Shown piece by piece: positions 4,808-33,734 of a DNA stretch of 64,000 bases. This DNA comes from Membranipora membranacea (taxonomy: Eukaryota > Bryozoa > Gymnolaemata > Cheilostomatida > Membraniporidae): the NCBI GenBank assembly GCA_914767715.1, contig OU612068.1:25050001-25114000 (forward strand), in the 5' to 3' direction. Each line of letters opens with the position of its first letter. Position 1 is the stretch's first letter. Position numbers and translations under genes: made by a program. The notes below the pieces were generated by a model. It was given only the letters and a program-made list of their open reading frames with translations, was not told the DNA's origin and did no database searches.

Positions 4808-7800
4808 CTAGACAAGAAAAGGTGTTTCTGGGTAGTCAAATAAAAATATTTCGTAGCGGTAATAAAACCTCACTCTATTTATTAAAACAGGATTTATTTC
4901 CTTCCAGTAGTCAGTGTAGGATTTGTGTGCCCCTTGCTTCTCTACTGATCTTATAGTCTTTGCTCTAACCTCATCCATAGTTTTCCGAGGGTCGATGACT
5001 CCAGCTTGTTTGAATATATATTCTTTCTCAGCAGCCATGTTTTCCATCAAAACTGGAAATAAATGACAATAAGTTATTTCATCTGTAGCTTCCTCAAAGG
5101 ATGGTGTTTAGTTTGCAAAGAAAGACAAAGGACAAAATCTTGGGAGGTGAATACTTGATTGGGAGTTATCCTGTCCATATCGTAGAATAGAAAACTTCCT
5201 CTTTGGGCCAATTCAGTAAGAAGGTAGCCAGAAAGGGAGTTCAGGCTAACACCAACAAAAGTCTTAATCTACTTAAAACATTGAAATAGTAATATCCTAG
5301 CCTTGTCATGCGGCCACAAAAAGTCATATTCAGTATCAGTACACCTCAGCACAGTGTAATGGAGGTGTAGAAAGCAGATTTTGTAGGTATCAAATTACTG
5401 GATTACTCACCCACATAGTCGTAAGGATAATCACAAATTGCACAGTGATGATATGTTCTATCTACGTGACCATAAGGCTCAGTCTTTTCACGTGAGAAAC
5501 TTTCAACAACACAGCGAAGAAAACTAGCAAAGGTTGTGATCTCACAATTCCGTCCAAACTCCAGCTTGCATCTATGAGCTAAAAAATATTGTATATTTAT
5601 GTAATAATGCAAATAAATGCACGATATGAATGAGAATACTAAATTGTCAAGGGTCCATGCCACCCTTTTTTTTTGAATTGCAGGATTTTAATCTGATATT
5701 AAATATATTTCTTGCAAGAAAAGTTCAATTTCATATCATGACTATGAGCCTGAACTATCCTGATCTAAATCAAGTTAATTATTTTGCATTTTTAAGGCCT
5801 CTTACGAACACTGGGGCTAGTTTTCATTAAACTTACATCTTTTAAATTCCCAATATGTTTCACACTTTTCTCTGTATACGCTGACTAGTCGGTCCCATGG
5901 GCTCCGTGATATGGTATAAGTGGTGTATTCTTTTACATCTTTAGGCTTTGTCTGGAATCGAACAATACATAATCACAGGGTAGACAAGTTCTCGATTTAG
6001 TTTATCAGGCAAGGATGAAATGAGATAGTTTTTGGATTGCCTTTTTTGTATCAAATAATGTTACTCTTCTTATTATAAATATGGCACGTTTTAAAAATTC
6101 AAATGCTGCAACTTTAGACTGGAACCTCAAGGGAGTCAGGTCAATTTCATATACTCTCAATGACTCGCTGTCTTCAGCAATCTCAGACAATTGCAGTCTC
6201 AGACCTAAAATAATCAGATTTACAGTGTTGTGATTTCTACCGCGAAACCAGACCAGAAAACTGACATCTTCCAAGAGAATGTTGCATGTCAAATGTGATA
6301 AATCATTTACCTGAGTGTCAAAAAAGTCTTGTAACTTTATAGCCCACATCTGGGAGATAAATGGTCTGGTAGGAACACGGCTAGGAGCAAAATTCATAAC
6401 ACTCCAAGCTCTCTTCCAAAACATAGAGCCCATTTTTGGCATCCAACAGAATCCCATCTTAAGACGTGTATTAATCATCACTTGCTAGATAAAGTGACAA
6501 GACAGATGTTATTCATAGCTTTTCAGTTATCATATTCAGCAATACTAAAATGGCGTTATGGGGTTAAAATCGCAAATCTGTCTCTTTCCAAAGACTGAGA
6601 AATAGCAACCGCTGTATTCAGCACCAAGTTGCTCTCTGTTTGCAGGCAGGTCAGAGCACACCTGGGGCGTCAATTGAGCCCAGTATTGGGCAAGTGGCAG
6701 GGGGATTTGAACCCAAGACCTTCAGTGCTTGCACATTAGAGGGCAGGCGCTATAACAGACTGAGCTACCTCCTACTACTTTTAGTTGACACACCAGATTT
6801 GATGCTGCCAGACAAGAGCTGGGCATATTCATTCCATCGTGTTTTTTGGAGATAATCTGAAGTAACAAGTGCCACCCACAAGGAATGCTATTAAACCTTA
6901 AATCAGTGCTGTGGCTTGACAGACAGCAGGATAGTTATATTCTCAAACGCAGGAAAACTAGACAATAATATTTTTATATCTCAAAATGATTAACACTAAA
7001 CTCACTGTCTCATGTATGTTACGCTTTCTTTTTTCCAGACCTCCATAATTAGAAAGTGATGCATTTAACATGTAAGAATGATAATCTTTGCACCTTTCCC
7101 TACAAAAATAAAGACAATCTATGACTCGAACAGCTCAGACGTCAATCCATGAATAATCTCGGTCACAGTTTGACCGTCTGAGTTTGACCCGATCAGCTGA
7201 CAGCTATGCCCTTGGTACTGATAGCCATGTCATTTGACTTGTAGCCATGTTGTAGCATGTAGCAGAGGTCGAGGAAGAGTTTAGATGTAAAGAATATGTA
7301 AAGAAGTTAACAAACCTCACCCATCCACCTGCGGCTTATCAGTGGAAGGAGAGCAACTCCAAATGCAGGCAAACTGGATCAAACTTGTATATATACAGGG
7401 AGGGTGGGACAATATCATACCGGGATCATACCTGACTCTTTTGATTCTTGCAGTGAGGACCACTCCCAGTTTTGTTTGATTCTGCCAGTCAGGCTCATAG
7501 TGCTGACACTGCTGATTGCTGCCGATACTCTCTGGACATGGGAAAAGACTACCAACGGGTTCTCCAACCAGCAGATTATGATTGAGTTTATTATTGTTTT
7601 CTGTTCCCTTTTTCTCGGTGGCTGTGTATCTTTTTTGAGTGTTTATACGCTCAGGCGCTAGCTGATGTTTATCCAAGCCGCTAACATTGGAGTTGATGAT
7701 TGTGGTGTGGTAGGCGGGAGTATTGTCACCTAAAAAGATCAAGAGGATGGGCTCAATCTTACTTTCAACATGCTGATCCATATAGCAGTAGGGAAAGGAA

Positions 7801-12101: not shown

Positions 12102-15100
12102 TCACACAATTGTCTCATCAGTTTGCTGCACCATTGGCAGATATGAAGCTGCCTTGTCATCATCCAGGTCCACACAACTCCTCGTAGTGAGTAAGTAGTC
12201 GTTCTCTGTGCTCATTCTGTTACACTCTGATCCACTGCCACCACTAGTACAGGCTATGGGTGCTATGGGTATATTAGGACGATCATGGCAACATTGCGTC
12301 GGTCTGACTTCGTAACAGAAAGCATCATCACCTGCATATCTACAATAATAATCCAGTATTTATTGTATGTTCAGCACACACACTCAAAAGGTGTGTGCAG
12401 ACAGTTTGTCATTGACTTCCGTTTTAAATTTATGTAGTAAAAAATATAGCTGAACAAAATTCTAAATACTTGGCAGCACACTAGTGATATTCAGAGAAGG
12501 ACGACAATGCTTTAGCTACTAAATACATGTTGTTTTCTCCTCTCTATGTTGTTAAAAGATTCTATTTTATATTAGTTGCTAAGAATACTGACCTGACAAC
12601 GTCTAGAGGGAAATGGAAGGAAGTAGGTCCTGCGCTGTGACTAGGAGATGGCATAGACATGGGTGTGTTAGGGGACGGGTGACTAGCCCCCATGTTTAGT
12701 AGAGTATGTAAGTCAACGTTTGAATGCGTGGATCTACGTCTAGGTGCTGATTGAGAACGCCTATATGACACCTCTGAATGATTTCTATGCCGAGAGAATG
12801 TCGATGTTCCCGCTAAAAATAGATATATATAAATGAGAATACATTGAGAAACTGTACAAACATGGGAAGTTATGTAATATATATATATATATATAATATT
12901 TAATACTTTTATTGTCAGCAACAATTCATCATTTTTGTTTCATGGCTGTTTTATAAGATTACCATGGGAGTCAGCCCCACTGAGCCCAATGAGCTTGATC
13001 TCAAGTAATTGAATCACCCATTGTCATTCACCAAGTCTTCCAGGACAAATGATGTGACACTCAACCAACATTAACCCAATAATCCAACAAAGGTCAATTC
13101 TAGGATATATGGATGGGATGGTTGGAGACAAACCATTAACACTGAAAACTAGAACACTGGTCACTCATCATTCCAAATCATAATGCAAGATAGAGGACCT
13201 TGTGGGCAGGGTAATAGTGTCGGAATAGAATGAGTTTGGTCCGTTTGCCAGCATACTAGCTGCTCGCCTTCCAATGGTCACACCGCAGGCAAAAATGTTC
13301 TTTGCCTGCGGCGTGACCAGTGGAGGGGGAGCAACTCCGAATAAAGGCAAACAGAGCAAACAAGGTCTAGTGTTGGATGAATAGAGATAAGAGACAGTAT
13401 AGTAAATTCTAGTGACTCTACTATTCTAGTGTCTAAATGTGATGCCATGCAGTAACAAGTGCTCATTTCAAATCACTGTGTGAATGACATTCCCTGGCAT
13501 AAACCATTCTGATGGTCCAATTGTTACAATTGAGCATGCTTTTGAGGCTAACATTTACAATTTTAAGTTTGTGCCAGAGTTAGATAGAGAGTGTTGTGGT
13601 GAAAATTCCATATAATCTACCGGCTTACACTGTATAGAGAGTTTTTTAACTGACGACACTCCAATATCTACAATATTAATGTTATTGATACGTGGCAGAC
13701 CTGCTAACACCAAATTAAACACAAAACCAGGAGAGAAGTGTTCAAAAATGTTTCACTCCAGTTTTCTAGAGATTTTGAGCAGAAATAGCGATTTTATCAC
13801 ACTCAGCTTATTATTAAATCTGTTGCTCTAACATTCTACAAATATCTACTTTGTTTGGCCTTAGATTGAGTATACCAATAACGAGAGCAATTATACTAAA
13901 TAAGATGAACTTACTATCAACAGATATAATGGAAGAGGACTGTCGTAGCATAGGTTTCTTGAATATTCCGCTGGACTTGAGCGGAGCAGGTGACATGTCC
14001 ACCTCTGTGGACTCCTCACAGTTATTGATCTGGGCTAACGCTGGACAGGCCAGTACTGGCTGTATGATATTGTCACTACGAGTAAGTAATCCATAGATAT
14101 CTATTGAGCTGGGTCTCTTCTGAGGATCAGCTTTCCAACAGTCTAACATTAGGGATTTCCTGCAAGGATGAATCGTTTGAAAAACATCATAATGCATAAT
14201 CATAAGCATATACATAGTATTTCGTTCAACAGACGGAAAAAAATGTCTGCTGCGTAGTGATAAGAACGAATCACTGGCCTTTGGGATTCAAATTTGACAT
14301 TTTTAAAAGGCAAGAGAAATCGTAGCACAAACTCACAGTTCATCCGTGCATTCCTCAGGCAGGGTAAGAGTATCTCCTGATTTGATAGACTCAAACACCT
14401 CAGCATTAGTCAGCATATTATAGGGAATCTGACCGAATGTTATTATCTCATATATCAGAATGCCGAAGCTCCATATATCAGTTTTATATGTGAAGATACC
14501 ATCAACAAAACTCTCAGGAGCCATCCAACGCACCGGCAATTTACCTGAAAATATAAATGTGAATACTGAATACAATGTGACTTCATATAGAATTTTTATT
14601 AATTTGATTTGTTCAGAATGAGGCCAACACAATTATCTTCTACAAAATGGTTGAACCAAGTGTGAGCAACAGGGGTGACAACTCGAAGTGAAGGCAACTC
14701 TTAACACAAAGTTAGGACTAAAACTAGTTAGTGCAAATATTAGCTACCTCTGATGCTATCTATAGATACTACAGGGTCCAAATGTAATACCAGCTCACCT
14801 CTGCGAGTGAATAGATAGCACCCATCATCATAAACACGCCTCGCCATACCAAAATCCCCAATCTTCACAGTACGACTAGAGGAAACAAGGCAGTTTCTGC
14901 AGGCTATGTCCCTGTGTATATACTCTCTAGAGTGGAGAAAGTTCAGACCCTCTATGATATCTACAGCCATACGAGTTAGGCTGGAGGCTGATATCATATC
15001 AGTGTCGTTGTTGTCACTACATCCGACCAGCTCTCGACGTGACAATAGGTAGGTCTTTAAATCACCTGGAAAATATCAGATAAATTAGTATACAATCCTT

Positions 15101-18100
15101 ACATTCATACAACTGATGTGTATATTCATTAACTAAGACAAATTTGGCAAGCTGACCCATATATTGGGTCTCTGTACATCTTCAATAATCATAATTACGT
15201 ATAGCAATTGATGAAGATGTAGAAATAAAATAAAAAAACATTTAGTGAATTTTAAGTTGACAAGATGACAAAACATATATTCCAGTAGGATTTTCTCTTT
15301 GGAACAGGCGAAGTAAGCATATGAATTTTATAATGCCTAAGTAAATATGATAAAAGATACCAGGTTCTTTATACACTTTACATGAGGGGAAATACCACAG
15401 AGTTTACAGTATAGACGCTGTGGATATTTCTCTGGGGGGCTCTTACATAGTGCAGCATATTACCAACTAGACATGAGCTACTCCCTAACAAATGATATGA
15501 ATACAAAACATAAAATCCTACATAACATACCATAAAGCATGAACTCCATGATAGCGTAGGCAGGTTCTCCCCGTGTTGTGACTCCCAGTAACTTGACTAT
15601 GTTTTTATGTTCGAATCGCTTCATAATGTCCGCCTCTCTCAAAAAGTCCAACTGTAATTATAATAGTTTGTGATGTATTGACTTGAGAATAAAAAAGCAA
15701 GCTTGTAATATAAGAGCGCCCTACGTTTTTCTTGTTGTCAAGTTTGGTTCGTTGATTTTTATTTTTAAAATGGGATAATTTAATCTTGGAGTTAAATCAA
15801 CTTTTTTTATAAAACATCCAGGAAGACATGATACTATCTGGGCTGGCTGGTATAAACTATAAGTGTCATAGCAATATAACCACACTAAAAGGATAGGTGG
15901 GTGTGGCCTTTTACATAGATGGTTAGTTGCAAGGAAATACCATGATGGAAAACTGTAGCTATTTACCTTCTCCTCACTATTGGAGCCTGGCCTTAGTGTC
16001 TTCACAGCGACTCCGGTCCATAAATGGTTGATGAATGCTTCCCCGCCATAGACTGTACCAAACGCTCCCTCTCCTAGCTTCCTATAATGTGAGAGAATAC
16101 AACCTACCTTATCAAGGATGTACAAATCAAAGTTACAGTCGCCGTTTTGTACAAGCTCAATTTAAGGATAGCCAACATTTTCTCACCCTCTTTGCTTTAT
16201 ATAAACTCCCACTAAAGCTAGCAAAAATTAAGTCTCCCTATGTAGCTTAACTAAAATCCAGTTAACATTTACATATTTATGGTAAAAATATTGAGATGTT
16301 ATGGTGCAAGTTTCTCCAAGTTTACTTTAGACTAGATTCAATTATTCAGATTAAACAGCAAGGTAACTCCTTGCCATGCCTCTCCGCTAATTCAGCTTCT
16401 CTCTAAACATGCTTCAACAACTCCCAATATTATTGAATGAAATTTATTACACGTCATAATTTGGCTATTACGTGACATTTGATGATGACAAATTATGGTA
16501 AATTCAAAAGTTACAGTCCTTTCTTTCCTAAGTAAGGTATAGGAAGCTGTAATTAGACACAGTAGCCTTACACTGGAACTTAATCATTATAATACACATT
16601 GAATGTTCATAGAAGTTTGTGATGGATTGAGAATGAAAAAGCGAACTTCCATAGTTTTATTTGCTGTCAAGTTTGATTTTTATTTTTACCTGTTGAGTAT
16701 TACATTGCTTCTGGGAATCTCCTTCTCGTCCAAGTTAAGCATCGGATAAAGTCTTTCTTCTCCTATTTTAGACACCATCTCAGCGGCAAGCCTGAAAAAT
16801 TTTAACAAATATAGAATCAAGCAGTCAATAGTCAATGTTTAAAGGAAGTCTTAAATAGTAAATGGGAAAAGTGCTAGGTTTGAGCGCAGGTGTACTGGTA
16901 TACACTGTATGTGCAGTACAACTTTTAAAACAGTATGCATGTTGAGATGAGCAAGGACAAGCACATTACCATGATGTGTTTTAACTGTTTTATCAATACT
17001 ATAAATTCACAATCAATTCATTAAAGTTTACAGCCAACACTTAAACTGGCCTGACACAGTTTTAATCGAAATCCAAACTTACTTGAACTTGCGTTTGGCC
17101 CTTCTCAGAGTTATCAGTGCACCGGCGATGATAAACAAGATGACGAATGTACAGGAGGGTATGACGACTATCATGAACGCGCTGGCACAACTTACATTCA
17201 GCGCTGTTCTGAGGTGTTCCCACTCACAGATTCCTGACAAATAGACAAACATATTGATTATTCTACTGTATGTCTAAGTACTTACAATGCTGCGTGTCAG
17301 GTAGATTTGAGCTTAATTATGTGTGTACCTAAAACATAACTAAGTGAGACTTCAATCTTGTCATCGTCAGATCATGGCAAAATGTTTACAGAAAAACATG
17401 GGATAAATCTGGGAGTTAGTTCAATTAAATACGTTCAACAGTGACTTATCAATATGTCCATCAATCGCTCTGAACAATGTTGTTCAGAGCGATTCAACTC
17501 CCTCAGCCGACAATTCTATGCTGAGGTGTTGGTGAACCTGCATAAGTCATGTCTTTTGATAACGATGATATATTACTGTACAAAACAAATCACTACAGAA
17601 GAACCATCATGCTTCTCTGCATTGTTTTTCACTCATAACTTCTGGGCTAATTGGTCAATAACCTTCTTACTTTCACATTATATCCATCAATGTCTCAAAT
17701 TACATATTGTAAAGTTTAGAGGATGGATGCGTATGAATTCCTGAGATATAGCTAGATAAAAAAGCTTCCCACGATTTTGTGTATTTGCTTGTTTTGATAA
17801 CTCCCTTCAGGTCACATGACTTGTCACAACGTAACGTTATTTTAGTATGATGAAAGTATTGGCTGTTGTGATAATAGCTTTCGCAGTAGCGATAAAGATA
17901 GCTTAGGAAACTTCATGAATTTCCATGTGCACCATCCATCTGTGTAGCACTATAGGAGCAGTACTTTAAGGTACACCTATGACATCTATAAAGCCTTACA
18001 CAATGAGGGAAAGCTCTTGGCATCATGAACTCAAAGGTGTGTTGGTCAGTTCCGTTGCGCATTATGACAAAACGCCATTCCAACTGTCCTGATATATGAC

Positions 18101-21100
18101 AGTAGCAGTTTTAACTAGTTAACATTGAACCATCCTCTAAAATCATTGAAATTAAGTCGCGTACAACAATGACCGTCCCGCTACCATATGTAACATTCAA
18201 TCGCAACAGCATCCCCAGGGTAACGCATTCTTAATGAACTTAGACTTAGTAACCAACAAGCCTACACTAGCCCATTCAAAAATTTCACATGCTTTAAGGC
18301 TGGTTCACATTGTCCCAGATGACACTGGGATGCCATTCCAGATGGTTATTCTAGATGGTCCCAGTCTTATGTTCACTTTATAAAATTTATCCCAGACTAG
18401 CAGTTAGGTTTTTGTCTGGGATGGTGCTGGGATGATGTTCACATTGTTTAGGATCGTCCCAGATCAACCCAGATGATCCCAGATGATCCAAATGTCTGGT
18501 TCACATAGCACCCAGATGTAAAATGAGTCTGGGTCCGTCTGGGACGGCATCGGTAAAGTTTGACGGTTACAAACTTTCCAGATGCTGTCCCAGACGGACC
18601 CAGACAGTCTGGGATTGTGTCATTTTCATCTTTACATTGACTAGGATGGTCGTCTGGAACAATGTGCACCAGCCATTAGTATATACACATACAGTAAGCT
18701 TAATCCGTGCGATGAAGGCTCCTCACCAACCCACTGGCTTTTTTGGTGTGAGCAAGAAAAGCAAAAATCCAGTGGTCAATGTGATTGAAGCTCACAGTTT
18801 CGGGAAGGTGTATTTATGCACAATATGTGCGACATATAATTAATGGGAACCCCAAATTGCCAGGTAGGGGTTGGGTTTGAATTACCTTGTGCTTCCACAT
18901 CTGTTCACGCAAAACAAAAAAAGGTTGTGCAGTTCAAACAAATAATTGACATTGGGGAGAAAAGTGCACAATGACTCAGGTTAATGATAAAAAATCAGCA
19001 TGTCCATCGAAACTCCTGGATCAAATATGATCCAATTTGCCTGCATTTGGCGTTTTGAGCCGCTGGCCACTCACCAGTAGAATGGGAACGACCAGAATGT
19101 GGGCAAATTGGATCAAACTTGATCAAGGAAATTCCGGCGAATTTCAAACGCACCAAAACTGATTCTGACATATCACTTGTACAGGGGGTAGGGGAGGCGA
19201 AGGTGTTATGCAATCAGGTTGACCACTTTGGTTAAAATTGGGTAGGAGGATGCATGCAAGCCCCATAATAAGAGCTCTAAAAAGTTTCAAACTAACAAAA
19301 ACAATATCAAAACTTAGATGGAACCAATTTGAGTGAATTTGGAGTTGCTCACCCTCGAGCTTGCAACCCAAAATGAAGGCAAATTGAATAGAAACAACTT
19401 TGTCTAATCAACGCTATAATGCTCGGTAGGGGTGGGTTAAATCATAAAATGGTTCAATGATAACTTACTTATTGCAGGAGGCTCAGTAATCTCGGGAATT
19501 TCACCCCATTCTATAGCGGATTTGTTCAGCCATAGCCCAGTTGTTGAAGACCAGTTCCCAAGAAATGTCTGCAGAGGATGGATAATAAGAAAATGAAGAT
19601 CCATATTACCAGTTTGAAGACAGGATAGGTTTTGACTGTGCTACCTTGCCGCTCGGAATCAATTACAAGTATCCAGTGATGGGGACAGGTATGATATCAC
19701 AGGTAGCTGGCTAGCTCTGAATTGTTAAATTATTGAAAATAAGAATTCGTACAGAAGGGTTATCACTAAGTTTGCGAATGTTTACATGATAAAAATATGA
19801 GTTCGCAAAGAACCATACAGCTGAGTAGGGAAGCTTACATGGACAAGGTATGCATCTTCCACACCAGATTTATTGTACTGTAATAATTCGATTATGCCCG
19901 ATCTGTCACCGTTAACAAATGATATTCTCCCAGATACGCCGGAAAAGTCTGTACGCTGAATTGCGTCAAGGTAACGTCTGTCCAAATAGAAAGTTTGCAT
20001 AAGTGTTGGTAACTATCCAAATCTCAATGTCAGGAGCATAAACATCATAATAATAATATTATTGACACATTTGCATTTTTGAGGTTCCAAGTTCCAGAAG
20101 AACAACATATTATCGGCAGCAAACCACTTAACACTTTTTCTGTTCAAGTTAACCTGGCCTTGCTCTTGCAAAACAGAATTGACGTAGTGTGTCTGAAATC
20201 ACTTTCATAATATACAGCCTGGCCAAGGTGGACAAATTATGTCGCTTGTAGACATATAAATAGGTATTTATTTGTGGTGTCGTTTTCTGATGAGCTTGAT
20301 GGCCGAATTTTCTGGGGAAATATTGTTTTGTACATTTTATGACAGGCAAGGAAATATGTAAATATATTTCTTGACACCAGGCCGATGTCACAGGAAAAAT
20401 GAGGCCTCATGGTTCGATATGGAATAGCATAATCCAAACTCTATGTTGAAATCTATACATAAACAATTGGTCACCTCCTAAACTGATAATCCACATCGTC
20501 TAATTGGTAGAGCAACAGCAACTCCAGAATATGTCAAGTCAATGGATCACAATTACTATGTTCCCATATGTCGATGTGACAGCAACTTGGGGGGCCAATC
20601 AATACATGGGAACAACATTCAGGTCGCATTGGTTCGTGTTTGTTTTTTTTTAATTTGGGAACCATGTTTCCATGGATCGGTAGCGTATATGAATGGATAG
20701 CGACAAAGACTAATTTGGGAGGCTGGGTTCAAATCCCGGAGGTAGATCTTTTCATCATCATAGACATTCGATTCGAGAGTGGACAACTCATTCGAAGCAT
20801 GGGATCATAGTGATTAATGCACCCATACTTACTCTGCCACGGTGTCGGAGTGTATATACTTGAGATATGCCGGATTTTCCTGGTATAAGTTCTGCAATGC
20901 TTTAGCAAATGTCCACACAGCGTCATATGTATAGGAGCCAAAGTCACTTGGGTATGACTGCAAAGAGAAAACATACGTACCAACATCTTAATGGGCTTTA
21001 AGTACCTTGGCTTGCATTCTTTCTACCTTTCTATTTCATTCTATTAATTTCTTCATTATCATCACTCAGGAATGATTGTTGTTTTTTAAACAATCTATTC

Positions 21101-24100
21101 TGGGCAAAAACAAACTGTACTATTAACATCATTATCATTAAAACCATTATTAAACATCAACAAGCCAGAACAAGTTTCTAGGAGTCCGACACACGTTAGC
21201 ATGGACCAAAATCGATCTAATACCATCGGATTACCTTTGGACCAGTGCTACTAAATCCAACCAGAAAATACTGCGTGCAGATGCAAGTTATTGGTATCAG
21301 TGTATTAATAATTTTTGCCTTCAGTTTCAATTTATTTGGCACAAGCATCATTCTAATAAATGAGTATTAGTAATGAGCAAATAACCAAGAGTTAATAAAC
21401 ACAAAGTTATTTCCTAGGGTTTGACTTTGGCTAGCGACTTTGACAATCGACATATTGGTACCTTGCATTTTTTATCTGTGTTCATCTGGACAATACAAAA
21501 AAAACTTATCCTTCCTTCACTGAGGTTTGCTATGGATTAAGAATGTTTGTACAACCCAAAAAGCCATCTAGACAGGAAGCGAAAAAATAAGGAGATTGGC
21601 TTTGATTTTAAATCGAGTGACACTTTTCCTGGGGGCACAGATTTTAGTTCTAGAGACAAACATAAGATTGGATCCTACATTTTTAGTATACATATGATCT
21701 TACCCGGTGACTGTCACAACGCTCCTTATACTTAGTACTAAACTGAGTGCCTGTCATTCCACCAACAGCTATTGTTCCTGTCTTGTCAATGTTAGAGTGA
21801 CTGAGAGTAAAGTAACCCCTCACAGCTAAAATAAACAAGCAGCAATGATGAGTGATCAGGGACTCTTTTATACCTAGCATTGAATTGATCAAATTTAAGT
21901 TAATACAATAAATGATATGATAATAATACAATTTAATCAAATACATCATTCAAATACAATAATTCAATACAAATTCATGCCTGCATGGGATACTAACTCC
22001 AAAACTAGTGGTTTGATTTTCAAGTTTTTTCGATCTAATTCAGACGCAAATTGTCCAAATATATTTGTTCTGAATTGGCAGAAAATTGGAGCTGTAAGCA
22101 GATTCAGTGTTAGAATTTAGGGGGTTGCAGGCAGATGGTGCCCCCCTTCCTATTTTGACTATATATCATAACCTGGGTTACTGCCAGCTGGTGAGTACAT
22201 CAATATGAGTTTTCCAAAATATGGCTCGAATTGATGCATTTTCATTTGTAATCACCACAGGGCTCTGGCGGCCCAGGCTCCGCCCCATACCCTGCCGGGG
22301 GACTAGTTGGCCCCCTGGACCCCTGGCCTGGTTGGCATCCCCCTATCTCATATTTTTCACTTCTAACTCTGTGCAGATTACATTGTGGACAAACAATTAC
22401 TCACCATCCGTCATCTCCTCCATAGTACAGTCAATCTTTAGTGTGTCGTCATAATACCAGTCCCACATGTAGGAGTCTGGTAAGAACCACTGGTAACCTT
22501 GTTTCATAGTCATTCCCTTCTTATAAGCCTGGCACATGATCAGTGGGGCAGTCCTCATAAATACATCCATTATTATTATATGTGAGTTGGTCTCTTTAAT
22601 CCTGTCCAGATACTACAAGATTGAAACACACAAAATACTCAGATGATGTTTGTCTACTTCACTGAATTACTTTTTGATCAGATTTTTGGCAGATTCTACA
22701 GATGGAATGTCACCAGATTTGAGCTGTCAGACGAGATCCTCTGTAATATTGGTGGCAAGAATGCAATGCAAAAGCGCACTATCACCTCAACCCAAGTTGA
22801 GTTAGTTTAGGTCTCTTGGGAATTGGTGTCCCTTGGGGGTCTCTCCTATACAGTCCAATTCATTCAGAACTTATCCCCTCTCATCCATCTGTTGGGTGGA
22901 TATTTTATATAGTGAAAAAGTATTACTATGAATCTATAAGAAAATTTCACGCTCTCTATCACATTGTACCCAGCAGTGGCCTATCAACAGTGAGCAAGTA
23001 TGAGTTTATCAATACTTGTTCCAAATGGAACTCAAGCTAACCTTTGAATAAGCCTCATTGAGATCTTCTGCTACTTGCTTCTCTAGATATTGTGGGCGTG
23101 GCAGGAGGATTTTAGCTGCCAGTTTTATGCCTTTCTCTTCAAACACCCTGCTCATGATGTCATGATATATGGCGTACTCTCCATGTTTATCATCAGTTAG
23201 CATCGAGACTTTGTTGTCTGTCCAGGCTAGCTCTTTAAATAGTGCCACATAAACCTCTCTATAAATATAAAAAACCAGTGAATTATCTAACATCACATTA
23301 TACAGAACATACCGATAAATTACAGATACACAAGATAATTACACATGAGAATGTGAGGAATTCGTCAAAATTGGGGCTTCATCTAACACTCATTATTGTA
23401 CTTGTGTTATTTTCAAGTGACTCTCGTTCTACATATTGTCATATTGGTCACAAAAATACAATATATGTAACAAGGTCTAGATTTTTTTTATCTGGCTAAT
23501 ATTCGACTTTTATCACTGACTAAATTTTACCCAATCCAAGCTAACTAAAAATAATTTTTTACACCTGAAGAGTTGCCTTATTTCTTGTGAAGAGGAGATA
23601 ATTCCTTGTTTCCACAATTTTCACACATTTCTTCTAACCATACTAATTTTTATCTTTCACCAGGTTTGTTTGGAGTGAATATTGAATATATAGTGATCGA
23701 GTGCAATTTTTGTGATGATGATATTAACATCATCTAAAAATTTTCCCCTTTAAAAGCTCGGCATAATGTGAAAATTTCTGCTGAAATTAAACATGGTGTG
23801 ATGCTTAGTGATTCAAATCCATAAATAAATACATAGTGGAAAGTGGCTATGGTGAAAAACACATAATTTCACACATATTTCTACATCAGCTTTGCCAATA
23901 TCAAATACTACTACAACAACAAACCTTGATAACGTACAATGAACTGCAATAATTATCTTCTTGAGACTTGGTAAACAATATTCTTCTCTCGTCAGCGTAC
24001 GATGCGATGTTATGTGTTTTTCAAGTTTGCATCTGTCTAAAGGGCTATTGATCTGAACGTTGCCTTTATTATTAATACCATAAGTCATCCAACCCTCTTA

Positions 24101-27100
24101 ATGCTCCTCGTTACACAACATCCAGTCAAAACGTCTCTCTGTTTACAGGCAAGCTTTCTGGAGAGGTGAATGACCGCGATAGTAATTGAAAAACAGCCCG
24201 CATAGTATTATTTGCCCGGTTTAGCTGAGCCACATTAATATCTTGTTTACTACGGAAAATATTAAACCATGAGATAAATTCAGCATTATTGTAGCTGTTA
24301 GCTAACTTTGAATGAAAATTCTATTAAATTAAGCTCATTAATGCAACCCATGGGGCCGATATTCTGACATATCGCAAGCCAATAAGGCAACATCAACAAC
24401 TCTACAACTATATTAAATTAAATAACAATATACATTCCTCAATAATAAGTCCGTAAATGTAGTCTTGTGATGTAATCACCAGCTTAGGGGCTTTGCTTTG
24501 GACTTACGCGTAGTCGTTGACTTGGGGCACAGTACGATAGAAGTATTTGTGCCTCTCTCTATTCAGGGATAACGCCATGGCCTCTGCCGCGTAGCTTATC
24601 ATGACGTAGTTGTACAATGATGCCACTCCAGCGGCTATAACAGCTGTATCAGAACAGGCAGGACCTACAAATTATAATATGGTCATATAAGTAATGCTCC
24701 GCATGCGACAAGAAACATTGATGCAACACTTAATCCTATGTTAATCATCAATCTACATCAGATAAATTTAAATTGCTAAGATAATGTGCTACAATCACAC
24801 ATAGTGTTTTTGAAGCTGTAAATGTAATATGGGCGAAGTGATGTCAATAATCCGTTTGTGTTAGTTTAGCAACAGCATGTCTACAGCTGTAATCCAGATA
24901 CAACAGGCAGAAAATTCAGAATCAGCATTAGAGTGACAGAGTATGGGAAGGAAGAACCAGAGACAGTAGATTATCTATGGTCTCAGGTTGTATTTATGGT
25001 CTCAGGTTGTATTTATGTATGTATGTTTTGAATTCGTCTCATTCTCTGAGAAATTAAATGTTTGTATAGGGTACCCTGGTAAAACTTGCAAAATATGATA
25101 TATCACAGTTATTACATAAATAAATGGGTTAAAAAATTGATAGAGAAATGACTACAACTTATGAAAAATACTATTAAGATATCTGTTACGATCGGCTCTG
25201 AAGCATTTAGCACTGCACTGCATCATAATGTAAAACATGGTATAATAACTCACCCAGACCGCCGACCATCTTATTCCATATGTTATCGTCTCTGACGTAT
25301 TCTGTGAATATCTCGAGAACCCACGAGCTGTCACAGCTGGTGTCATTCTCCAGTAATGTCAGATCATATTCACATAATATATCTGTGTCGTTATTTATCA
25401 ACTCTATAGCCATTCGAGCCGCTGACATAAATATATAATATGTGATTCCATGAAGTGTATTTTGCTAATATATATATAATTTAATTTATTATTTATATTT
25501 GACTCGATTTTTGTTGTTTTTTAGAAGAAGAGTAAATTAAAACTGCAAAAAGCTAAATATCTTCTTGCATTTTATCATTTGCAATACGAAAACATGGATA
25601 TTGCTCTCATCGACATAATGGGAGAGAACCGACTGCCCTCGATCAAGATTAAACCAGGGACTCAATTTGCCCAGGCCAAGTCATTTCATGAAGACAATTT
25701 AAATTTATCAAAATTTACACTGCATTGTGGGACTGTATGAACATATGTATGTATATGCATAAGAATGAGGCCTTTATTAAATTTAGCACATGAACACATG
25801 ATATGATAATTATTTAGATGTTTATTTTGTGTTCTTATGTTTCCTGTGGTGTCCATGTATGCCATCAATCTAAGCCTGAAAACTTACCAGGTACGAGGCT
25901 GGGTTCCCTCCAGGCACCATCTTCATGAAGAGGAAACATGCCACCAATATAGAGCTTAGGCTTCTGTTCGGCTGCCTCAGGGACCCACTTTTTTATTCGA
26001 GTAGAGTTTTCGGACACCAGCTGAGCAGTAAAGTCCTCCATACTATCACCAGAACTGATATATCTACTATACATATCTATAACCTCTTCATTAGAAAACT
26101 GAATATTCTAGAATACAAAGAAGATACTTCGATGATTTTTTTTCTAACACTTTTATTGGCATTCTTCTTCATTCCAGAGGCGGAATGTTTTCCTAGTAGT
26201 GCCGTCAAATATTTGAATGCCATTTACAGCTACAATCAAATCCTTACGTAGTAGGCACCCCTCAGCAACATTTTACAACAATTTTTAATTTTAAATTAAT
26301 GTCTTTTTGTGACGCTAGCCTTCCTATATCTTACTTTAAAAGTAAAACCGCATGTCATGTCATATTCTTCCCAAAACAAACCAATACTCGACATATATCA
26401 TATTTTATGTCTTTTTTGAGCGTGGAAGGTATAATTTGCCGTTGCTCAGACAAGCATTATTAGTTTTGTTTGTGATGAAAATTTCAAACAAATTGTTTAA
26501 CTTCCTAATTTCATTAACCAGATATAAATCATGAGGACTTACTTTGATAAGTTCATAAATAAGAGGTTCTGATGTGACCAGGGATCTCCATATCACTTTT
26601 CTTAGCTCAGCCTGAGGGAAATGGCAGAAGGAACAAGACGGCTCCAGCGATCTAAAGTAGGAAAGATACAGTGTAAGACAATAACAAACCTCATCACGTT
26701 AAATCTATATATATACATGTACTAGGTTAGAAAGTGAAAATTAAAATTAAAAAAATCTATAGATACAGTGTAAGATACAGTGTAATTCTTACAGTGCAGT
26801 GTAATAAAAAAAAATTTTAATTTAATTTTGAAAACAAGCTGGTGGTGATGGCATTAAATCATTTGAAATGACTCACTATATAATCGTAGGAACACAAGCT
26901 AATTATGGTATAGTGTAAGACAATAACAAACCTCATCACGTTAAATCTATATATATACATGTACTAGGTTAGAAAGTGAAAATTAAAATTAAAAAAATCT
27001 ATAGATACAGTGTAAGATACAGTGTAATTCTTACAGTGCAGTATAAGAAAACAAAATTTTAATTTAATTTTGAAAACAAGCTGGTGGTGATGGCATTAAA

Positions 27101-30100
27101 TCATTTGAAATGACTCACTATATAATCGTAGGAACACAAGCTAATTATGGAATCGCACTAACACAAAATGTTTTGTCTTTTTCAGGATTTATCCCCTCAT
27201 GTCTTGAAAGAATCAGTACATGCGGCCTACCAGTGACAAGGCTGCTAAAAACATTATAATGTAGGACAAAACAGTCATCAAATGACTTGCAATATTAGCG
27301 ATGGTAGCAGGCAAACTATTGTTTATGTGTTACCTGACTCTAGAAAGTCGACCGCTAAGATGAGAAGTAATTATCGCATCGGTGCTGCTCAGGAACGTCA
27401 TGAATGGTGTGTTGTTGTCGCTCAATATGGTGACAACATCAGTTATGTGCTGTCCTACATATTGGACTTGTAACGAGATATTCAGAGTTGCTATGGTCGT
27501 CCACAGACCCTCAATCGGATAGTCTGGAAAACAAAATTTTTCCATCCATAACAAATATTATGTTTGCTCTGAGAGACAGGATGAGATAGGTACTGGTACA
27601 GGGCAAAATTTGATGACTTAACACATATACCCATACGGATCTCTGCTTCGAAATAAGTGCAAATCTTGTTGAATTTTTTGTGTTCATTCAAGCTAGCAAC
27701 ATTACACATATTATCACTTCAGTAAACAGCGATTTGATTTGTCTGGCTTAATTCCAGGAAAAGAAATATATCATAGCCACCTATTATATAAAATTAGTGA
27801 GGTGGCGCCTGCAACAAGTAACGCAATATTGAACATCCCTTCTGGTCGTAAACAACTTGCACTTTATAGGCCATAATGTATAAATACTAAATAGTCATCA
27901 GTATATACTAAGCCGTTGACCGGCTTCTTGTTCAAGTAACTATTATGTTGATTAGCGTAATAATGTTGTTTTGATATGCAAATCTGAACAGACATGTTTT
28001 GTTGCGCAAGGCAAGCTCTTCAGATTGATCTGGGAGACCATTCAGCTGAGAGGTGGGGCTCAGCTGAGAGGAGGGGCTCTGTCTAGAGTTGTGGGTTTGG
28101 TCATGTGCAAACAGGTCCTATCATGTAATCATATGGGATGGTGAAAAGATAGTTAGCTCACTCATTCCATCCACATTCATAAGGAACAAAAAACGTGAGA
28201 TAAAGATTACCATACCAAAGATATTAAATACTAAATGCTAGTCTTTGCTAATACACAAAGCACTTATCACACCTGACCCTGTTTGACAAACAAATAAGTT
28301 TAGAGTTGCAAAAAAACCTAGAAGACTATTCTAGAGTGAAATTTCAAGAGTTGACTAATCTTGTAGATTCAAAAAATTAGTAATTGCTTGACATGACTTC
28401 AGTTCAAAACAAGTACTCAAATTTCTATGTCTATGGGCATGAGTCAATCTGGTGCAGAGACAGTTGTAACAAGATTTTGGGAATTGGTATTACAGGAAGA
28501 GCACTGGTGTGGCTAAAGTCATAGTAAAATAACACTTCACACAAGGAACTGCTTTTTTCAATGTCAAGCTACTTTCAACACACTCCTGTTAATTTAATTT
28601 ACATTTAGGAATAACAAAACATCAAAAGAGCTAGCTATTCTCAATGCTAATTTGACACATACAAGTTATTCACGAACTAAGTTCATGACTTTAACAGAAT
28701 TACAAGTGTTTGCGATAGATCTTACCAGTGTCACCAAGCAGTAGTATGGCACAGGTTGTATTTTGGCAAGTCGGGGATGAATAAATATATTTGAAACACA
28801 GGCTAGCATTAGCACACTTTAGATCATGTAATTCCTTATAATTCTCCAGTTCCTAGAAGTGAGAAAAAAACAAATACGATACAAATGTTCAAATCTGCAG
28901 CGCTTCAACAATGAAGAACAAAAATTTCACGCAAAGGTTTTGTTTTCATATTTGACTATTGACAGATAAGACCGATATTTTTCTTGACAACAGATTTTAA
29001 TATTTGGTGCGCAGAAAATTTTCATATTATTCCATCTTTAGAAAATTTAAATAAAATAATCGATAGCTTCCGATTTCAACAACAACATCGGAGTTATGTA
29101 TAACTGAAATTGGGTAAATATTTTTGCCGCACTTTGAATGGAACGCAAACATTGGATTCAAATTGTTTGCAGGTAAAACTACATGCAACCTATACTCGTG
29201 TCATTGGGCCAATGTCATGGTTAGCTGCAAGGCAAGGCAAAATCTATAACGTTATCAAGATATTTTTAGCTTTGTAGTAAGTTTTATCGCATATGTTTTT
29301 GTTAAAATGTAGTAGCAAAGTCTATGAACTGCTTTTATCTCAAAGAGTACACAATGCATCAAAAACAGGGAATGATGTATAAAGGGCCAATATCTTTCTC
29401 GTCGGGTGCTTGCTGAGATATGGGAAATGTGTGAACTTCTTTCCCTCATAACGACAGCTCCAAAAAAATCAACTATTAGCCGCATAAAAATATACTCCGG
29501 AAAGCCAATATAAAATATAATAATATGTTGTGTTTGTTATTCGTCTGTTCTTTCAGAGGAACACCCTCTGTTGGTTGGTTTCCCCTGGTCGGCTCTTTCA
29601 TTGCCTTGGTTGTCAAATTTAATACATAAGGCTTCAACCAGATAATCCCCACCACACTTGTCTAATACAATATAACACATAATCTCCTGTCTGATATTAA
29701 TACAGACATTTACGGCAGTGCATAAAAAATCAAAGGAATGTTTTCCATATTCCATGAAATTCAGCACATAGCACCAACTATGAACTGCCATGCCATCACA
29801 CAGAGAGAAAGAACCCTAATTGATCTGAAGTGCGCCTCAGTTGACTGGCGGCCCGACTAGGTCTAAACTATGTGACTATGTGCTATGGCTTTACACGTTT
29901 AAAAAAAATGTTTCAATCCAAGAAATGAAACCATTAAAAATGGCAGCAAAGCCTATGGGCTGCTAGGCCTTTTACGTTGTGAGGCCGATAGGCAGAGAGG
30001 TATATAGTCAGCGAGGCATAGAGGCTAATCGTTAAAGTTGAAGAGACACTCAAACGGACAACATGACCTGTCAAATATCTACTGACCTTATTGATTTCCT

Positions 30101-33100
30101 GATTGTGTTGTGAGAACGATTGAATGACTTCTGGTTTACGCAGATCCTCATAGGCTGAACTGCACTGCAACTCGTCTATGGCGGGATCGCTGACAAAGAT
30201 TCCATAACTAAAGAGAAAAGAAAATAGTAATAAGAGGGTAACAAACTCTGTTAAAGCTATAGTAGGGCCTCCCCATATTTGGTATCATGATGAAAGTCTC
30301 AGTCTGTGGCAACTTTTTAAATAGCCTCTGGGCGCAGTTGAAAATTCTTCTCAACTTTTCACAACCACAAAGTCAAACATTTCTGTGTGCTGTTCTCTGA
30401 AAAGTCATCAGCTGCCGCTTAAATCAAGGTAGTAAATTACTCAGTTCAATGCCTTAGTGTTTAGGTGAGAGAACAGCCGCTGACATTATCAACATTGTTG
30501 GCAGCACATCTCACAAGTATAATGACTGCGCATCAGCACAGCAGTAATGTATGGAGATAAAAACTAAGCATAGCTAATGATATAACATCACCAGGCACAA
30601 ATGTCAATTACGCTTGTTGTTTTGACAGGATTGACAGATATCAAAACAGTATTTCAATGACATACTATTTGGTGGTAGCTCTCAGATAACTCAGCAGACA
30701 GTATAACTAGACAGTTACCAGTACATTGGGGTGAACAGAAGTCATTTTTTTGGTTGCACTGAGCAGCTGTTTCACACGTAATTTTGGGGTGTCCATGCAG
30801 CCGCCACACTTCATTTTACTCTACATTTATGTACACAACGCCTCAACAAAAACAAACGCCGACAACCGAATCGTGCCCCAAATGACCAGAGTTTAACAAC
30901 ATGATCACACATTAAGATTCATCTGAAGGGACTAACATTATGTCTGAATTTACAAGAGCTCTGAATAAAGTAGAAGTACACTTTATATAATATGAGCAGT
31001 CTCTCACTTGTACACAATTGGCGGGAGGCTCTGGGAAGGTCCCTCATGTTACCGCATACAGTCAGAGGTCCCAACCGCAACACAATGCTATTTTCTACCA
31101 CCACTTCTCACTCAAAGCGCTTCCGATCAGATTATCCCTTAAATAGGTGTGAAAATAACGGACCTTTTTTTGCCCACTGCATAATGACAGAGTAAGGATG
31201 TTTCCTTTCTCTGTGATATGATATTGTTCACAGTTATTGCCTGAAGCACAATAATATATAAACATGACAAACATGTTATCTAGGCCATATGGTGCCGTGC
31301 CGGTACTAACGGTTACCAAAGGCACACGATTCCAGGTCATCACGACTGTAAACAGCAAACTGTCAACACAATTTAAATTACCTCATAGTAATACCAAGCC
31401 TTCCGGCATCCTTAAAGTCATCCGATAATGGGGTGCTAGATGACTGTATACTGATCATTGCTGCCTGGGGCCATCCTTTCAACTTAGTGGAGTCATCAGA
31501 GTCCCTGTCAGCGTAAATAAAAACGAGTGATTATTACAAGTGAGAAGAGAAGGAGAAATAAATTTTAAATTTTGCCCACAACTCGGTAGCTCTATAGTGC
31601 GTACCCTGGCTATAGCTCTCAACTTGGGCAGTTAATAAATACTATATAATGACTCATATCCCAACATTACTCATTTTTATGGGACAATCTCAAATCTAAA
31701 ATGCCTTCCAGAGGCTTCTTATACAAATTACCAGGAACTTCACGAGCCACCAGGGTGGCTGTGATGTCTCATTTTGATTAAAATGAGAAGACTAAAGGCC
31801 CTTCCCACACGACACAGTTGTATGATAAATAATTTAAATTAGCACAGACCAATGAACATTTCTGAGAATATATAATCACAGCAGTAGCCACAATATGTTT
31901 TTTATCTGGATAAGTAACAGTACATTATATCGAGAATGTTCTACATATGTTTCAAGTTTTAACAAGTCACTATTTTGGTTCATGAGGCTGAGAAAATAGT
32001 GAACAACAAATTTTTTATTGTTCAAACTTGAATACCCGCCAAATTTCCCAGTCCTTGTCCATCAAATAGTTTATAAACGAGGGATTGATGGAGTGAGTAT
32101 TTCGGCTTTACAGTCAATAGCAACCCTAGGTAAAATAGCATCCAAACACTCCGGGTCAAATTTCACTTAAGCAACTGACAACAGAGTCCATCAGCTAAAC
32201 AACTTGGATATCATGTTTACTTTATGATCCACGATTTGTTGTGTAATTCTTAGCCTTGGTAACTTGAGAGACATACCTTGCAGTACAGTTTGAGGGTATG
32301 GCTGAATGCCCTCTATTGAATGATTTTTCACCGGGATCGTTGTCAAATGCGACAAGATGATAGCCAAGTTTTTTCGTGAGAAGTGTCTTGACATACCAGT
32401 TGATTAATCTACAAAAATCAGCGATCAAATAAAGGTCACTAAGAACAAACAGGAAAGCATATCACTGCTTTACTGGAAAAACAATGCTCAACCACAGCTA
32501 CTATGAATAAATGAATATTACATGACATAGTATTTACCCATCACTAGAAGTACAGCATGGTCAATATCCATGTTTGTGCTTAGATTTTAAATGTCAACTA
32601 CAAGTCTCCAACTGTTTTAAACATTGATGAGTTACCACACTTTTCTGAGAATTGAACAAATTCATAAGTGAAATCTTTTGTACCCAGCTCTAAGGACGCT
32701 ACGCTGTTTCTTCAGTGTTGACTCATAAGAGGATTAATGTTTCAGCATTATCCTCCCTAGGCTATTACATGACCTATTAAATTTTGAGCACTATTATAAA
32801 AGGAAAGGATAAGATATGTTCATACGAAAATAGGATAGGGCCACATTTCCGTTCATTTCTTATCTTATCTAGACATAAAAACAAAATACAAAGATACCAA
32901 ACTCCCTGAATACAAACCTTAGCTGATCATTATAGGGAGTGTCTGCTATGGTAATACTATGTTCAGCATAACAATCTGCACCATTAGAGATATGATGATG
33001 ATAGAAATGCCTCACCACAGCTGCCGAAGCTACGAACAAAGAAAATGATTCATTATTTACACAATAATTACAGCATCAGGCCAATATTCAGCCCAGCAGA

Positions 33101-33734
33101 AGAAAGGATGCAGCAGTGCAGTTTGATAAAGAAAAAAACGGATAACTTGATGAATTAGGTCATTATCTCATTAAGCAGTCAGATGTTATTTGATAAACAA
33201 TCGTGTAGCTGTTGTAACGGCTATTATGTCTAGTCGATGTTGTTTAGCCCTTTAATGGAGTCAATCAAGCGCAATGCCATTGAATAACAAATTGTTTATA
33301 ATTTACCACAAAACATTCCAAGTTATACATTATTATTTGTGGCCTGGCTTGTGGCGGGTGTAACTTTTTATGCATACGAGCTCTGTAAATAATAATCAAA
33401 CAGCAATCAATGCCCTGAAACACAGCGCAACTCAAGTGTTTCTTATACAATGGTTGGTAGTGTCGATGACTTTTAACTCAACAACTGTGTCTACTATAAT
33501 AGTAATTGCTACTATAATATATTTAGTATTATGAGCAATGCAGTGGATGATTACATATAGAAAGCTTGCATATGCTTGCAGCAGAGATAGGAATGGGGCT
33601 AAGGGTAAATGTGAAAGTAGATATTTACAAGTCGTGGATTGACATTCATCTTCGCACTTCCCACTGTTTGTTAGAGCGACCAGTATAACCAGTAAAATTG
33701 TCAGGCAGTAGATATAGGGAAGATCTTTATCCAT
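12102..33734 (-). CDS. VKR: Venus kinase receptor-type receptor tyrosine kinase with extra OpuAC-like ectodomain, 26 exons
   Basis: Exon ends (minus strand, high-low): 33734-33629, 33029-32918, 32408-32277, 31504-31382, 30207-30087, 28852-28726, 27523-27334, 26651-26543, 26083-25888, 25421-25254, 24664-24508, 23258-23042, 22612-22405, 21825-21704, 20957-20833, 19977-19839, 19568-19469, 17233-17083, 16791-16690, 16081-15967, 15651-15531, 15065-14799, 14544-14337, 14159-13915, 12812-12593, 12339-12102. All joins keep frame, giving 1372 residues. Order: signal peptide (1-27); OpuAC-like module (about 36-380, ending ENSTRIKKWVPEA); Venus flytrap (about 383-817; KLYIGGMFPL, YDAVWTFAKALQ); one membrane helix (about 835-860); tyrosine kinase with GEGAFGTVYGG, VAVKTL (Lys about 929), HRDIACRNCLV (Asp about 1033), DFGMAR and LPVRWMAPES; Ser-rich tail. 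The family binds amino-acid-like ligands and signals at the cell surface. The kinase is insulin-receptor-like. The extra N-terminal module is inferred from sequence pattern only. Confidence 0.94.
13282..13338. repeat. Hairpin plus dispersed-repeat core in receptor-kinase intron
   Basis: CGCAGGCAAA and TTTGCCTGCG form a 10-bp stem at 13282-13308. The dispersed-repeat core GCAACTCCGAATAAAGGCAA follows from about 13331. It lies in the intron between the two exons that precede the last exon. Confidence 0.6.
17463..17494. repeat. 32-bp perfect palindrome
   Basis: AATCGCTCTGAACAA, two bases, then its exact reverse complement. It lies in the receptor-kinase intron just upstream of the membrane-helix exon. 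Confidence 0.85.
18298..18674. mobile_element. MITE with internal CCCAGA repeats
   Basis: It starts GGCTGGTTCACATTGTCCCA and ends with the near-exact reverse complement of that repeat (about 26 bp with a few mismatches). It is 377 bp long with no coding capacity. The interior is full of CCCAGATGATC-like and TCTGGGAC-like units in both orientations. It lies in the 2.2-kb intron before the membrane-helix exon of the receptor kinase. Confidence 0.82.
19030..19135 (+). repeat. Dispersed repeat, copy near 19.1 kb
   Basis: The core GGGCAAATTGGATCAAACTT, followed by GATC, matches the copies at 7.3 and 47.7 kb. A partial inverted copy lies just upstream, near 19025. Confidence 0.55.
19336..19390. 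repeat. Dispersed repeat, copy near 19.35 kb
   Basis: An inverted GGAGTTGCTC segment is followed by a direct GCAACCCAAAATGAAGGCAA segment, like the other family copies. Confidence 0.45.
20494..20745 (+). repeat. Split tRNA-like sequence (SINE remnant?)
   Basis: TCTAATTGGTAGAGCAAC resembles a tRNA D-arm/A box. A good B box (GGGTTCAAATCCCGG) appears about 210 bases later. The spacing is far too long for a tRNA, so this is either an interrupted SINE or chance. Confidence 0.3.
26670..27150 (+). repeat. 242-bp tandem duplication in receptor-kinase intron 7
   Basis: Two nearly identical units, starting at 26670 and 26912, begin AGTGTAAGACAATAACAAAC and end ACACAAGCTAATTATGG. The first unit starts about 18 bases from the 3' splice site of receptor-kinase exon 8 (acceptor at 26652-26653). 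The high identity suggests a recent duplication or a heterozygous-haplotype artefact. Confidence 0.9.

What the first reader, a model, noticed from the sequence alone, without database searches (positions are those of the whole stretch)
12102..33734. Receptor tyrosine kinase with two different bacterial-type binding-protein modules in tandem
Seen: 26 minus-strand exons join without a frame break into signal peptide, a roughly 340-residue N-terminal module, a Venus flytrap, one membrane helix and an insulin-receptor-like kinase. Known: Venus kinase receptors normally have only the flytrap (type 1 periplasmic-binding fold). Inferred: the extra module has the layout of an OpuAC-type (type 2, glycine betaine/choline/proline) substrate-binding protein. 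It has a conserved LGY segment near its start and a C-terminal pattern in which a helix precedes ENSTRIKKWVP. Exon 9 encodes both the end of this module and the start of the flytrap (KLYIGG), so the fusion cannot be a simple gene-prediction merge. A kinase that might read two classes of small osmolyte or amino-acid ligand would be new to me.
Basis: partly seen in the sequence, partly recalled or inferred. Interest (0 to 1): 0.85.

Follow-up and report, generated by a model that had tools for sequence, protein, structure and literature searches.

The report
Overlooked second module in Venus receptors
The gene is an ordinary invertebrate Venus kinase receptor, but its extra front part is real: it is related to bacterial betaine-binding proteins and is found in such receptors from corals to insects, although the descriptions we could read mention only one outer binding domain.

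Summary
26 minus-strand exons (33734-12102), all GT-AG, join in frame into 1,380 residues: signal peptide, ~345-residue N-module, Venus flytrap, one membrane helix, insulin-receptor-like kinase. The N-module is homologous to OpuAC-type (type 2) substrate-binding proteins: seven VKR N-modules against nine bacterial ones give hhalign 99.6%, E 5e-25, over both lobes; two controls gave 0.1-0.2%. Best solved relative: TmoX, 4XZ6. The premise that Venus kinase receptors (VKRs) normally have only the flytrap is wrong: 105 of 120 listed VKRs have at least 330 residues before it, and 101 of 126 homologues match an N-module profile nearly end to end. The 2009 family paper says no other known domain could be found; our searches found no report of one. 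Three residues aligned with the bacterial ligand box are conserved in relatives (Arg 103/105, Trp 106/116, aromatic 107/118), but the window has Tyr, Met and Ser there and differs at four other conserved sites. A two-ligand receptor is plausible for the family, weak for this gene. By itself the window module matches Pfam OpuAC only at E 0.2. No fold was predicted; the tool was off.

The parts
33629..33734 (-). Exon 1: signal peptide, residues 1-35
   Evidence: hydropathy; donor one of several possible
32918..33029 (-). Exon 2: start of N-module, residues 36-72
32277..32408 (-). Exon 3: N-module, LGY segment
31382..31504 (-). Exon 4: N-module
30087..30207 (-). Exon 5: N-module
28726..28852 (-). 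Exon 6: N-module, four conserved Cys
27334..27523 (-). Exon 7: N-module second lobe; Ser at the site of the conserved Trp279
26543..26651 (-). Exon 8: N-module second lobe
25888..26107 (-). Exon 9: end of N-module and start of flytrap (KLYIGG)
25254..25421 (-). Exon 10: flytrap
24508..24664 (-). Exon 11: flytrap
23042..23258 (-). Exon 12: flytrap
22405..22612 (-). Exon 13: flytrap
21704..21825 (-). Exon 14: flytrap
20833..20957 (-). Exon 15: flytrap
19839..19977 (-). Exon 16: flytrap
19469..19568 (-). Exon 17: end of flytrap region and stalk
17083..17233 (-). Exon 18: membrane helix (residues 844-862)
16690..16791 (-). Exon 19: juxtamembrane
15967..16081 (-). Exon 20: kinase, ATP-binding loop
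15531..15651 (-). Exon 21: kinase
14799..15065 (-). Exon 22: kinase, HRD and DFG motifs
14337..14544 (-). Exon 23: kinase, PVRWMAPE
13915..14159 (-). Exon 24: kinase end and tail
12593..12812 (-). Exon 25: cytoplasmic tail
   Evidence: no homologue support, set by open frame and splice sites
12102..12339 (-). Exon 26: cytoplasmic tail and stop
   Evidence: no homologue support, set by open frame and splice sites

Best explanation
The gene is a Venus kinase receptor (VKR). Its outer part has two clamshell-type modules in tandem: an N-terminal one related to OpuAC-type (type 2, betaine/TMAO-class) bacterial substrate-binding proteins, then the known type-1 flytrap. Shown by sequence: this architecture is common to VKRs from cnidarians to insects, so the module was probably present before cnidarians and bilaterians split. 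Inferred: in most VKRs the first module still closes on a small, probably charged or zwitterionic metabolite held by a conserved Arg and two aromatic residues, and its closure tunes the flytrap dimer that switches on the kinase, as a second or allosteric input beside amino acids or hormone. In the window's own lineage the box residues are lost, so here the first module most likely persists as a structural or protein-binding part or has another ligand.
For: 26-exon in-frame model. 105 of 120 listed VKRs have at least 330 residues before the flytrap; 101 of 126 homologues match the N-module profile nearly end to end (105 of the 126 built that profile). OpuAC relationship: Pfam, TmoX E 2.6e-12, tblastn to bacterial substrate-binding proteins, best E 2e-8, hhalign 99.6% with two controls at 0.1-0.2%. 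Site conservation: Arg55 103/105, Trp119 106/116, aromatic at 279 107/118, Pro281 115/118. One transcript: cloned locust VKR of 1,277 residues, same length as its module-bearing congener P0024.
Against: No ligand, structure or assay of the module. The window module alone reaches PF04069 only at E 0.2, below cut-off, and not at all in the full-length scan at E up to 1. Among relatives only 6 of 120 have a precomputed PF04069; locust P0024 and Tribolium P0010 show none. The acidic residue of the bacterial box is absent in VKRs and one cage Trp is replaced by Arg, so a betaine-type ligand is not implied. Four of 112 relatives covering both sites lack both Trp119 and an aromatic at 279, so the box is not universal.
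Confidence: 0.6

Rival explanations
1. The first module has become a protein-binding or dimerisation domain (for instance for neuroparsin/OEH-type hormones in arthropods) and binds no small molecule in any VKR.
For: OEH binds mosquito VKR and how a large ligand fits the flytrap is open (review). Arg replaces a cage Trp and the acidic residue is absent. The window copy has lost the box while its kinase motifs are kept.
Against: Cleft-site residues are conserved in VKRs of phyla where no neuroparsin was found, such as molluscs and Limulus relatives (for the absence, for the residues).
Confidence: 0.3
2. Two neighbouring genes were merged by the reading: a secreted OpuAC-like protein and a flytrap kinase.
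For: None found beyond the absence of transcripts for this species.
Against: Exon 9 encodes the end of one module and the start of the next; relatives from several phyla have both in one protein; a cloned locust cDNA has the full length.
Confidence: 0.02
3. The module was acquired recently in the window's lineage.
For: The module is bacterial-type and the window VKR has the longest branch of 121 (1.23).
Against: Homologous N-modules in the same place in named cnidarian, arthropod, mollusc, nemertean, brachiopod and annelid VKRs; the window module is cut by seven introns between exons 2 and 9.
Confidence: 0.01

Closest known systems
Venus kinase receptors (e.g. LgVKR = Lottia 109151 = P0055; SgVKR)
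   Same: Flytrap, one membrane helix, insulin-receptor-like kinase, and (shown here) an N-module in front of the flytrap.
   Different: The papers seen describe only flytrap, helix and kinase. The window copy is the most divergent of the 121 compared and differs at seven otherwise conserved N-module sites.
TmoX, TMAO-binding protein (4XZ6), and other OpuAC-type substrate-binding proteins
   Same: Sequence profile over both lobes; sites of Trp102 and Trp222 mostly aromatic in VKRs.
   Different: Extracellular part of a receptor, not of an ABC importer; Cys-rich insertions; Arg instead of one cage Trp, no acidic residue at the Glu131 site; in the window none of the three conserved box sites is kept.
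Ionotropic glutamate receptors (recalled, from no call)
   Same: Animal receptors that carry a type-1 and a type-2 binding-protein module in one chain.
   Different: Ion channels; order type 1 then type 2; the type-2 module belongs to another substrate-binding family.
Allomyces class C GPCRs with OpuAC domains (PMC3251606, passages)
   Same: OpuAC domain used as the outer part of a eukaryotic receptor.
   Different: Seven-helix receptors in a fungus, not a tyrosine kinase; the passages do not describe an OpuAC-flytrap tandem.

Membership tests
Venus kinase receptor | Extracellular flytrap (ANF_receptor) | tested here: met
   PF01094 E 2.3e-42, residues 413-782
Venus kinase receptor | Single membrane helix | tested here: met
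   Hydropathy peak 844-862; other peaks are the signal peptide and a weaker one inside the flytrap
Venus kinase receptor | Insulin-receptor-like tyrosine kinase with catalytic motifs | tested here: met
   PF07714 E 2.6e-84; GEGAFG, VAVK, HRD, PVRWMAPE, GDFG in exon 22; likeness to insulin receptors taken from its VKR relatives, not tested against insulin receptors
Venus kinase receptor | Activation by amino acids | not testable with these tools
   Published residue numbers could not be mapped
OpuAC / type-2 substrate-binding protein (N-module) | Pfam PF04069 above its curated cut-off | tested here: not met
   Window module 11.7 bits against 21.2; none in the full protein. Relatives above it: 3 of 7, 1 of 7, 6 of 120 precomputed
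OpuAC / type-2 substrate-binding protein (N-module) | Profile homology over both lobes | tested here: met
   A1 (window plus six VKRs) against A3: 99.6%, 287 columns; window alone 95% over its last 79 residues only
OpuAC / type-2 substrate-binding protein (N-module) | Type-2 periplasmic-binding fold | not testable with these tools
   Structure prediction not answered or off
Betaine/TMAO-binding OpuAC proteins (function) | Aromatic box of Trp residues plus a polar contact | tested here: not met
   Window: Tyr, Met, Tyr, Ser at the sites aligned with TmoX Trp55 (site inferred), Trp102, Glu131, Trp222. VKR family: Arg, Trp, mostly Phe, mostly Trp. The MAFFT alignment instead puts a nearby window Trp at the Trp102 site

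The most novel reading that the evidence does not exclude
VKRs are two-input receptors: an ancient OpuAC-derived clamshell with its own conserved Arg-Trp-aromatic box senses a small metabolite or osmolyte and gates the flytrap, so that a reproductive receptor kinase combines metabolite, amino-acid and hormone signals; this would supply a missing ligand in the phyla that have VKR but no known hormone for it. The window's lineage has secondarily lost that input.
Probability: 0.35. Interest if true: 0.85.

Novelty: new variant of a known kind. Interest (0 to 1): 0.62.

Why it matters
VKRs act in egg formation in mosquitoes and schistosomes and are discussed as drug targets. The 2009 family paper concludes that they join two known domains and that no other known domain could be found. 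A conserved third domain of a known class, about a quarter of the protein, changes how ligand, hormone-binding and construct experiments on VKRs should be read, and makes the ligand question testable: which module binds neuroparsin/OEH, calcium or amino acids, and what fills the conserved box. For this window's gene itself the interest is lower, because its box is degenerate. The rating 'new variant' refers to the published description of VKRs; compared with its actual relatives the gene is an ordinary member.

Tried and rejected
Merge of two genes: rejected (exon 9; relatives). Lineage-specific fusion: rejected (family-wide presence). Unrelated N-terminal domain: rejected by profile comparison with two controls, the flytrap alignment and the reversed N-module alignment.

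Led nowhere: mapping the published flytrap residues S66, R107 and Y406. Naming the species: 0 tRNAs and 0 Rfam matches at gathering score; trees disagree. FastTree sets the window with echinoderms and cnidarians at support 0.239; IQ-TREE on 30 sequences sets it beside 12 arthropods at ultrafast bootstrap 100; the branch is long, so this is unresolved. Finding the module outside VKRs with the protein search: 4 proteins at E up to 1 and 2 at E up to 0.1; those with a name or domain are coral or VKR pieces, P0123 and P0124 are unnamed. NCBIfam gave only weak, below-cut-off matches to choline/ProX-type proteins and two unrelated families. In one search unrelated chains follow the binding proteins (designed armadillo repeat E 0.008, LSD1 E 0.14 and up), and the first-lobe matches to 4XZ6 and 7YLE are not significant alone. 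Platyhelminth and choanoflagellate VKR-like proteins were not tested; the 2013 table gives the SmVKR flytrap as exons 7-10 and SpVKR as exons 9-14, which leaves room for the module.

Rows dropped: one search found 176 proteins (from 7,991 scored candidates) and listed 120; only the 120 were used. In one search, 30 of 119 records were listed; 24 of the 30 carry a feature name, 23 of them substrate-binding protein and 1 ABC transporter; the 64 Listeria and 7 Enterococcus records were not looked at. Of 11 plasmid loci fetched, L005 and L010 (no annotation) were left out of A3. A2 held 84 proteins.
Full report
What is there. The minus strand from 33734 to 12102 holds 26 exons with GT-AG introns that join in frame into 4,143 nt and 1,380 residues. 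The boundaries were set by hand from open frames, splice signals and tblastn with 120 VKR proteins. The ends agree with the finding's coordinates. Pfam sees ANF_receptor at 413-782 and tyrosine kinase at 908-1167; hydropathy shows a signal peptide and one membrane helix, with a weaker peak inside the flytrap. Exon 9 carries the end of the N-module and the start of the flytrap. The E1/E2 join is the least certain, and exons 25-26 (tail) have no homologue support.

The module is a family feature. A search with the flytrap and kinase pieces gave 176 VKR-like proteins at E up to 1e-30, 120 listed. 105 of these 120 have at least 330 residues before the flytrap; the other 15 have fewer. A profile built from those 105 N-modules matches the window module at 119 bits over its length. 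Of 126 homologues match this profile nearly end to end, 24 in part and 1 (sea urchin P0102) not at all; 105 of them built it, so this is no independent test for those. Of the 15 short ones, 12 begin (within 12 residues of their start) in the middle of the module, as truncated gene models would. The three echinoderm models keep at most its last part; the published table gives the sea urchin flytrap as exons 9-14 of 21, so upstream exons exist there. Named carriers include Tachypleus, Ixodes, Tribolium, Schistocerca, Lottia (LgVKR), Haliotis, Lingula, Tubulanus, Lamellibrachia and Montipora. The locust S. gregaria VKR ORF of 1,277 residues was confirmed by PCR and Sanger sequencing (PMC5601475, passages); its congener P0024 has the same length and carries the module, so one transcript most likely spans both modules.

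What the module is. All seven N-modules of alignment A1 match Pfam OpuAC at E up to 1, best 4.1e-10, the window's at E 0.2. Full-length proteins exceed the curated cut-off in 3 of 7 and 1 of 7 (window included); 6 of the 120 listed carry a precomputed PF04069. The A1 profile finds TmoX (4XZ6, E 2.6e-12) and 7YLE (E 3.5e-6) as best solved relatives; the first-lobe matches are collinear but not significant alone. The coral module alone finds the same two chains at 8.7e-7 and 3.3e-4. tblastn of the coral module against plasmids gave 119 records at E up to 5, best 2e-8 (second lobe); 16 records cover at least 80% of the module, best of the listed ones 2e-4; 23 of the 24 named rows among the 30 listed are substrate-binding proteins. 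Nine of these bacterial proteins (A3; three checked as OpuAC) align with A1 by hhalign at 99.6%, E 5.4e-25 (one-pair comparison), 287 columns through both lobes. The 105-sequence profile also gives 99.6%; the flytrap alignment and the reversed N-module give 0.1% and 0.2%. The window module by itself is weak: none in the full-length Pfam scan, hhalign 95% over its last 79 residues only. Its assignment rests on homology to the other VKRs.

The ligand box. In TmoX, Trp55, Trp102, Trp177 and Trp222 form the aromatic box and Glu131 binds the TMAO oxygen (PMC8918994, passages); DmpX has a similar box of four Trp (PMC10030565, passages). In the alignment, Trp102 corresponds to VKR Trp119, Trp222 to Trp279 and Glu131 to residue 147 (P0125 numbering). 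In one search an invariant Trp of the bacterial proteins, which I take to be that of Trp55 (inference; that part of TmoX was not printed), faces VKR Arg55. The partner of Trp177 is unclear. Among 125 homologues matching the profile, Arg55 is kept in 103 of 105 covering it, Trp119 in 106 of 116, position 279 is Trp in 86 and Tyr or Phe in 21 of 118, and residue 147 is never acidic in 117. Four further sites, not known to be in the box, are also conserved: Trp149 110/114, Trp170 103/113, Trp257 114/117, Pro281 115/118. So the site is conserved but differs from the bacterial one, which suggests a different, perhaps partly anionic or zwitterionic ligand (inference). The window has Tyr, Met and Ser at the three conserved box sites and Ile, Tyr, Tyr and Thr at the other four; at 147 it has Tyr, as 12 of 117 relatives do. 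Four of 112 relatives covering both sites (P0028, P0033, P0054, P0068) also lack Trp119 and an aromatic residue at 279. The MAFFT alignment places a neighbouring window Trp at the Trp119 site, so that loss is less certain than the others.

What is known. Ahier et al. [quoted passage not shown] Vanderstraete et al. 2013 checked architecture by SMART and describe flytrap, helix and kinase (PMC3703292, abstract, sections 6 and 8, part 1 of section 5, passages). The reviews PMC4522560 (two of three parts) and PMC4026697 (passages), and passages of PMC4038586, PMC5601475, PMC6401105, PMC4888303 and PMC12837073 describe no such module; the word OpuAC occurs 0 times in the full text of these nine papers. 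67 papers hold the phrase venus kinase receptor (20 listed); only three papers hold both OpuAC and venus, none with a title about VKRs. Searches of OpuAC with receptor tyrosine kinase and with invertebrate gave no report. The library lacks most subscription papers, and Vogel et al. 2015 was not held. Pfam matches in database records exist for some VKRs, so the domain is visible to automatic annotation. OpuAC domains are reported in fungal class C GPCRs (PMC3251606, passages). Ionotropic glutamate receptors (recalled) are an animal precedent for a type-1 plus type-2 tandem.

How it may work. VKRs act as dimers whose flytraps bind amino acids, arginine most potently, and mosquito VKR responds to the neuroparsin OEH. 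The most likely role of the first module is a second, ligand-set input on the flytrap dimer; this is inference from the conserved sites and has no direct test. The main rival is a hormone- or protein-binding role. In the window's lineage the first input has probably been lost or changed, while the kinase motifs are kept.

Verdict. Architecture and OpuAC relationship: about 95% sure. Sensing role in the family: about 35-40%. Sensing role in this gene: low. The interest lies in an undescribed third domain in a receptor family that matters for reproduction and as a drug target.

Noticed in passing
window 811-1908 (+): Open frame of 366 codons with BTB_2 (E 1.6e-13) and Ion_trans (E 1.3e-10): a voltage-gated potassium channel-like exon.
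   Followed up: partly
window 58190-59728 (-): 513-codon open frame with a reverse transcriptase domain (RVT_1, E 1.9e-38), probably a retrotransposon remnant.
   Followed up: no
window 26670-27150: Two 98% identical 242-base tandem copies in the intron between exons 7 and 8, ending 19 bases before exon 8.
   Followed up: no
window 14799-15065 (-): The activation loop reads DDGCYLF where most relatives have twin tyrosines (DYY); one relative (P0066) also has CY.
   Followed up: no
P0125 (Oculina patagonica): A coral VKR isoform of 881 residues with both outer modules that ends just after the membrane helix, without the kinase; a possible decoy form.
   Followed up: no
P0028, P0033, P0054, P0068: Four relatives (Pinctada and three unnamed) also lack both Trp119 and an aromatic residue at 279, so the box has been lost more than once.
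   Followed up: partly
window 4811-5107 (-): Weak Sulfotransfer_2 match (E 0.006, below cut-off), possibly an exon of a sulfotransferase gene.
   Followed up: no
window 43111-43312: Tandem array of a 24-base unit, 8.8 copies.
   Followed up: no
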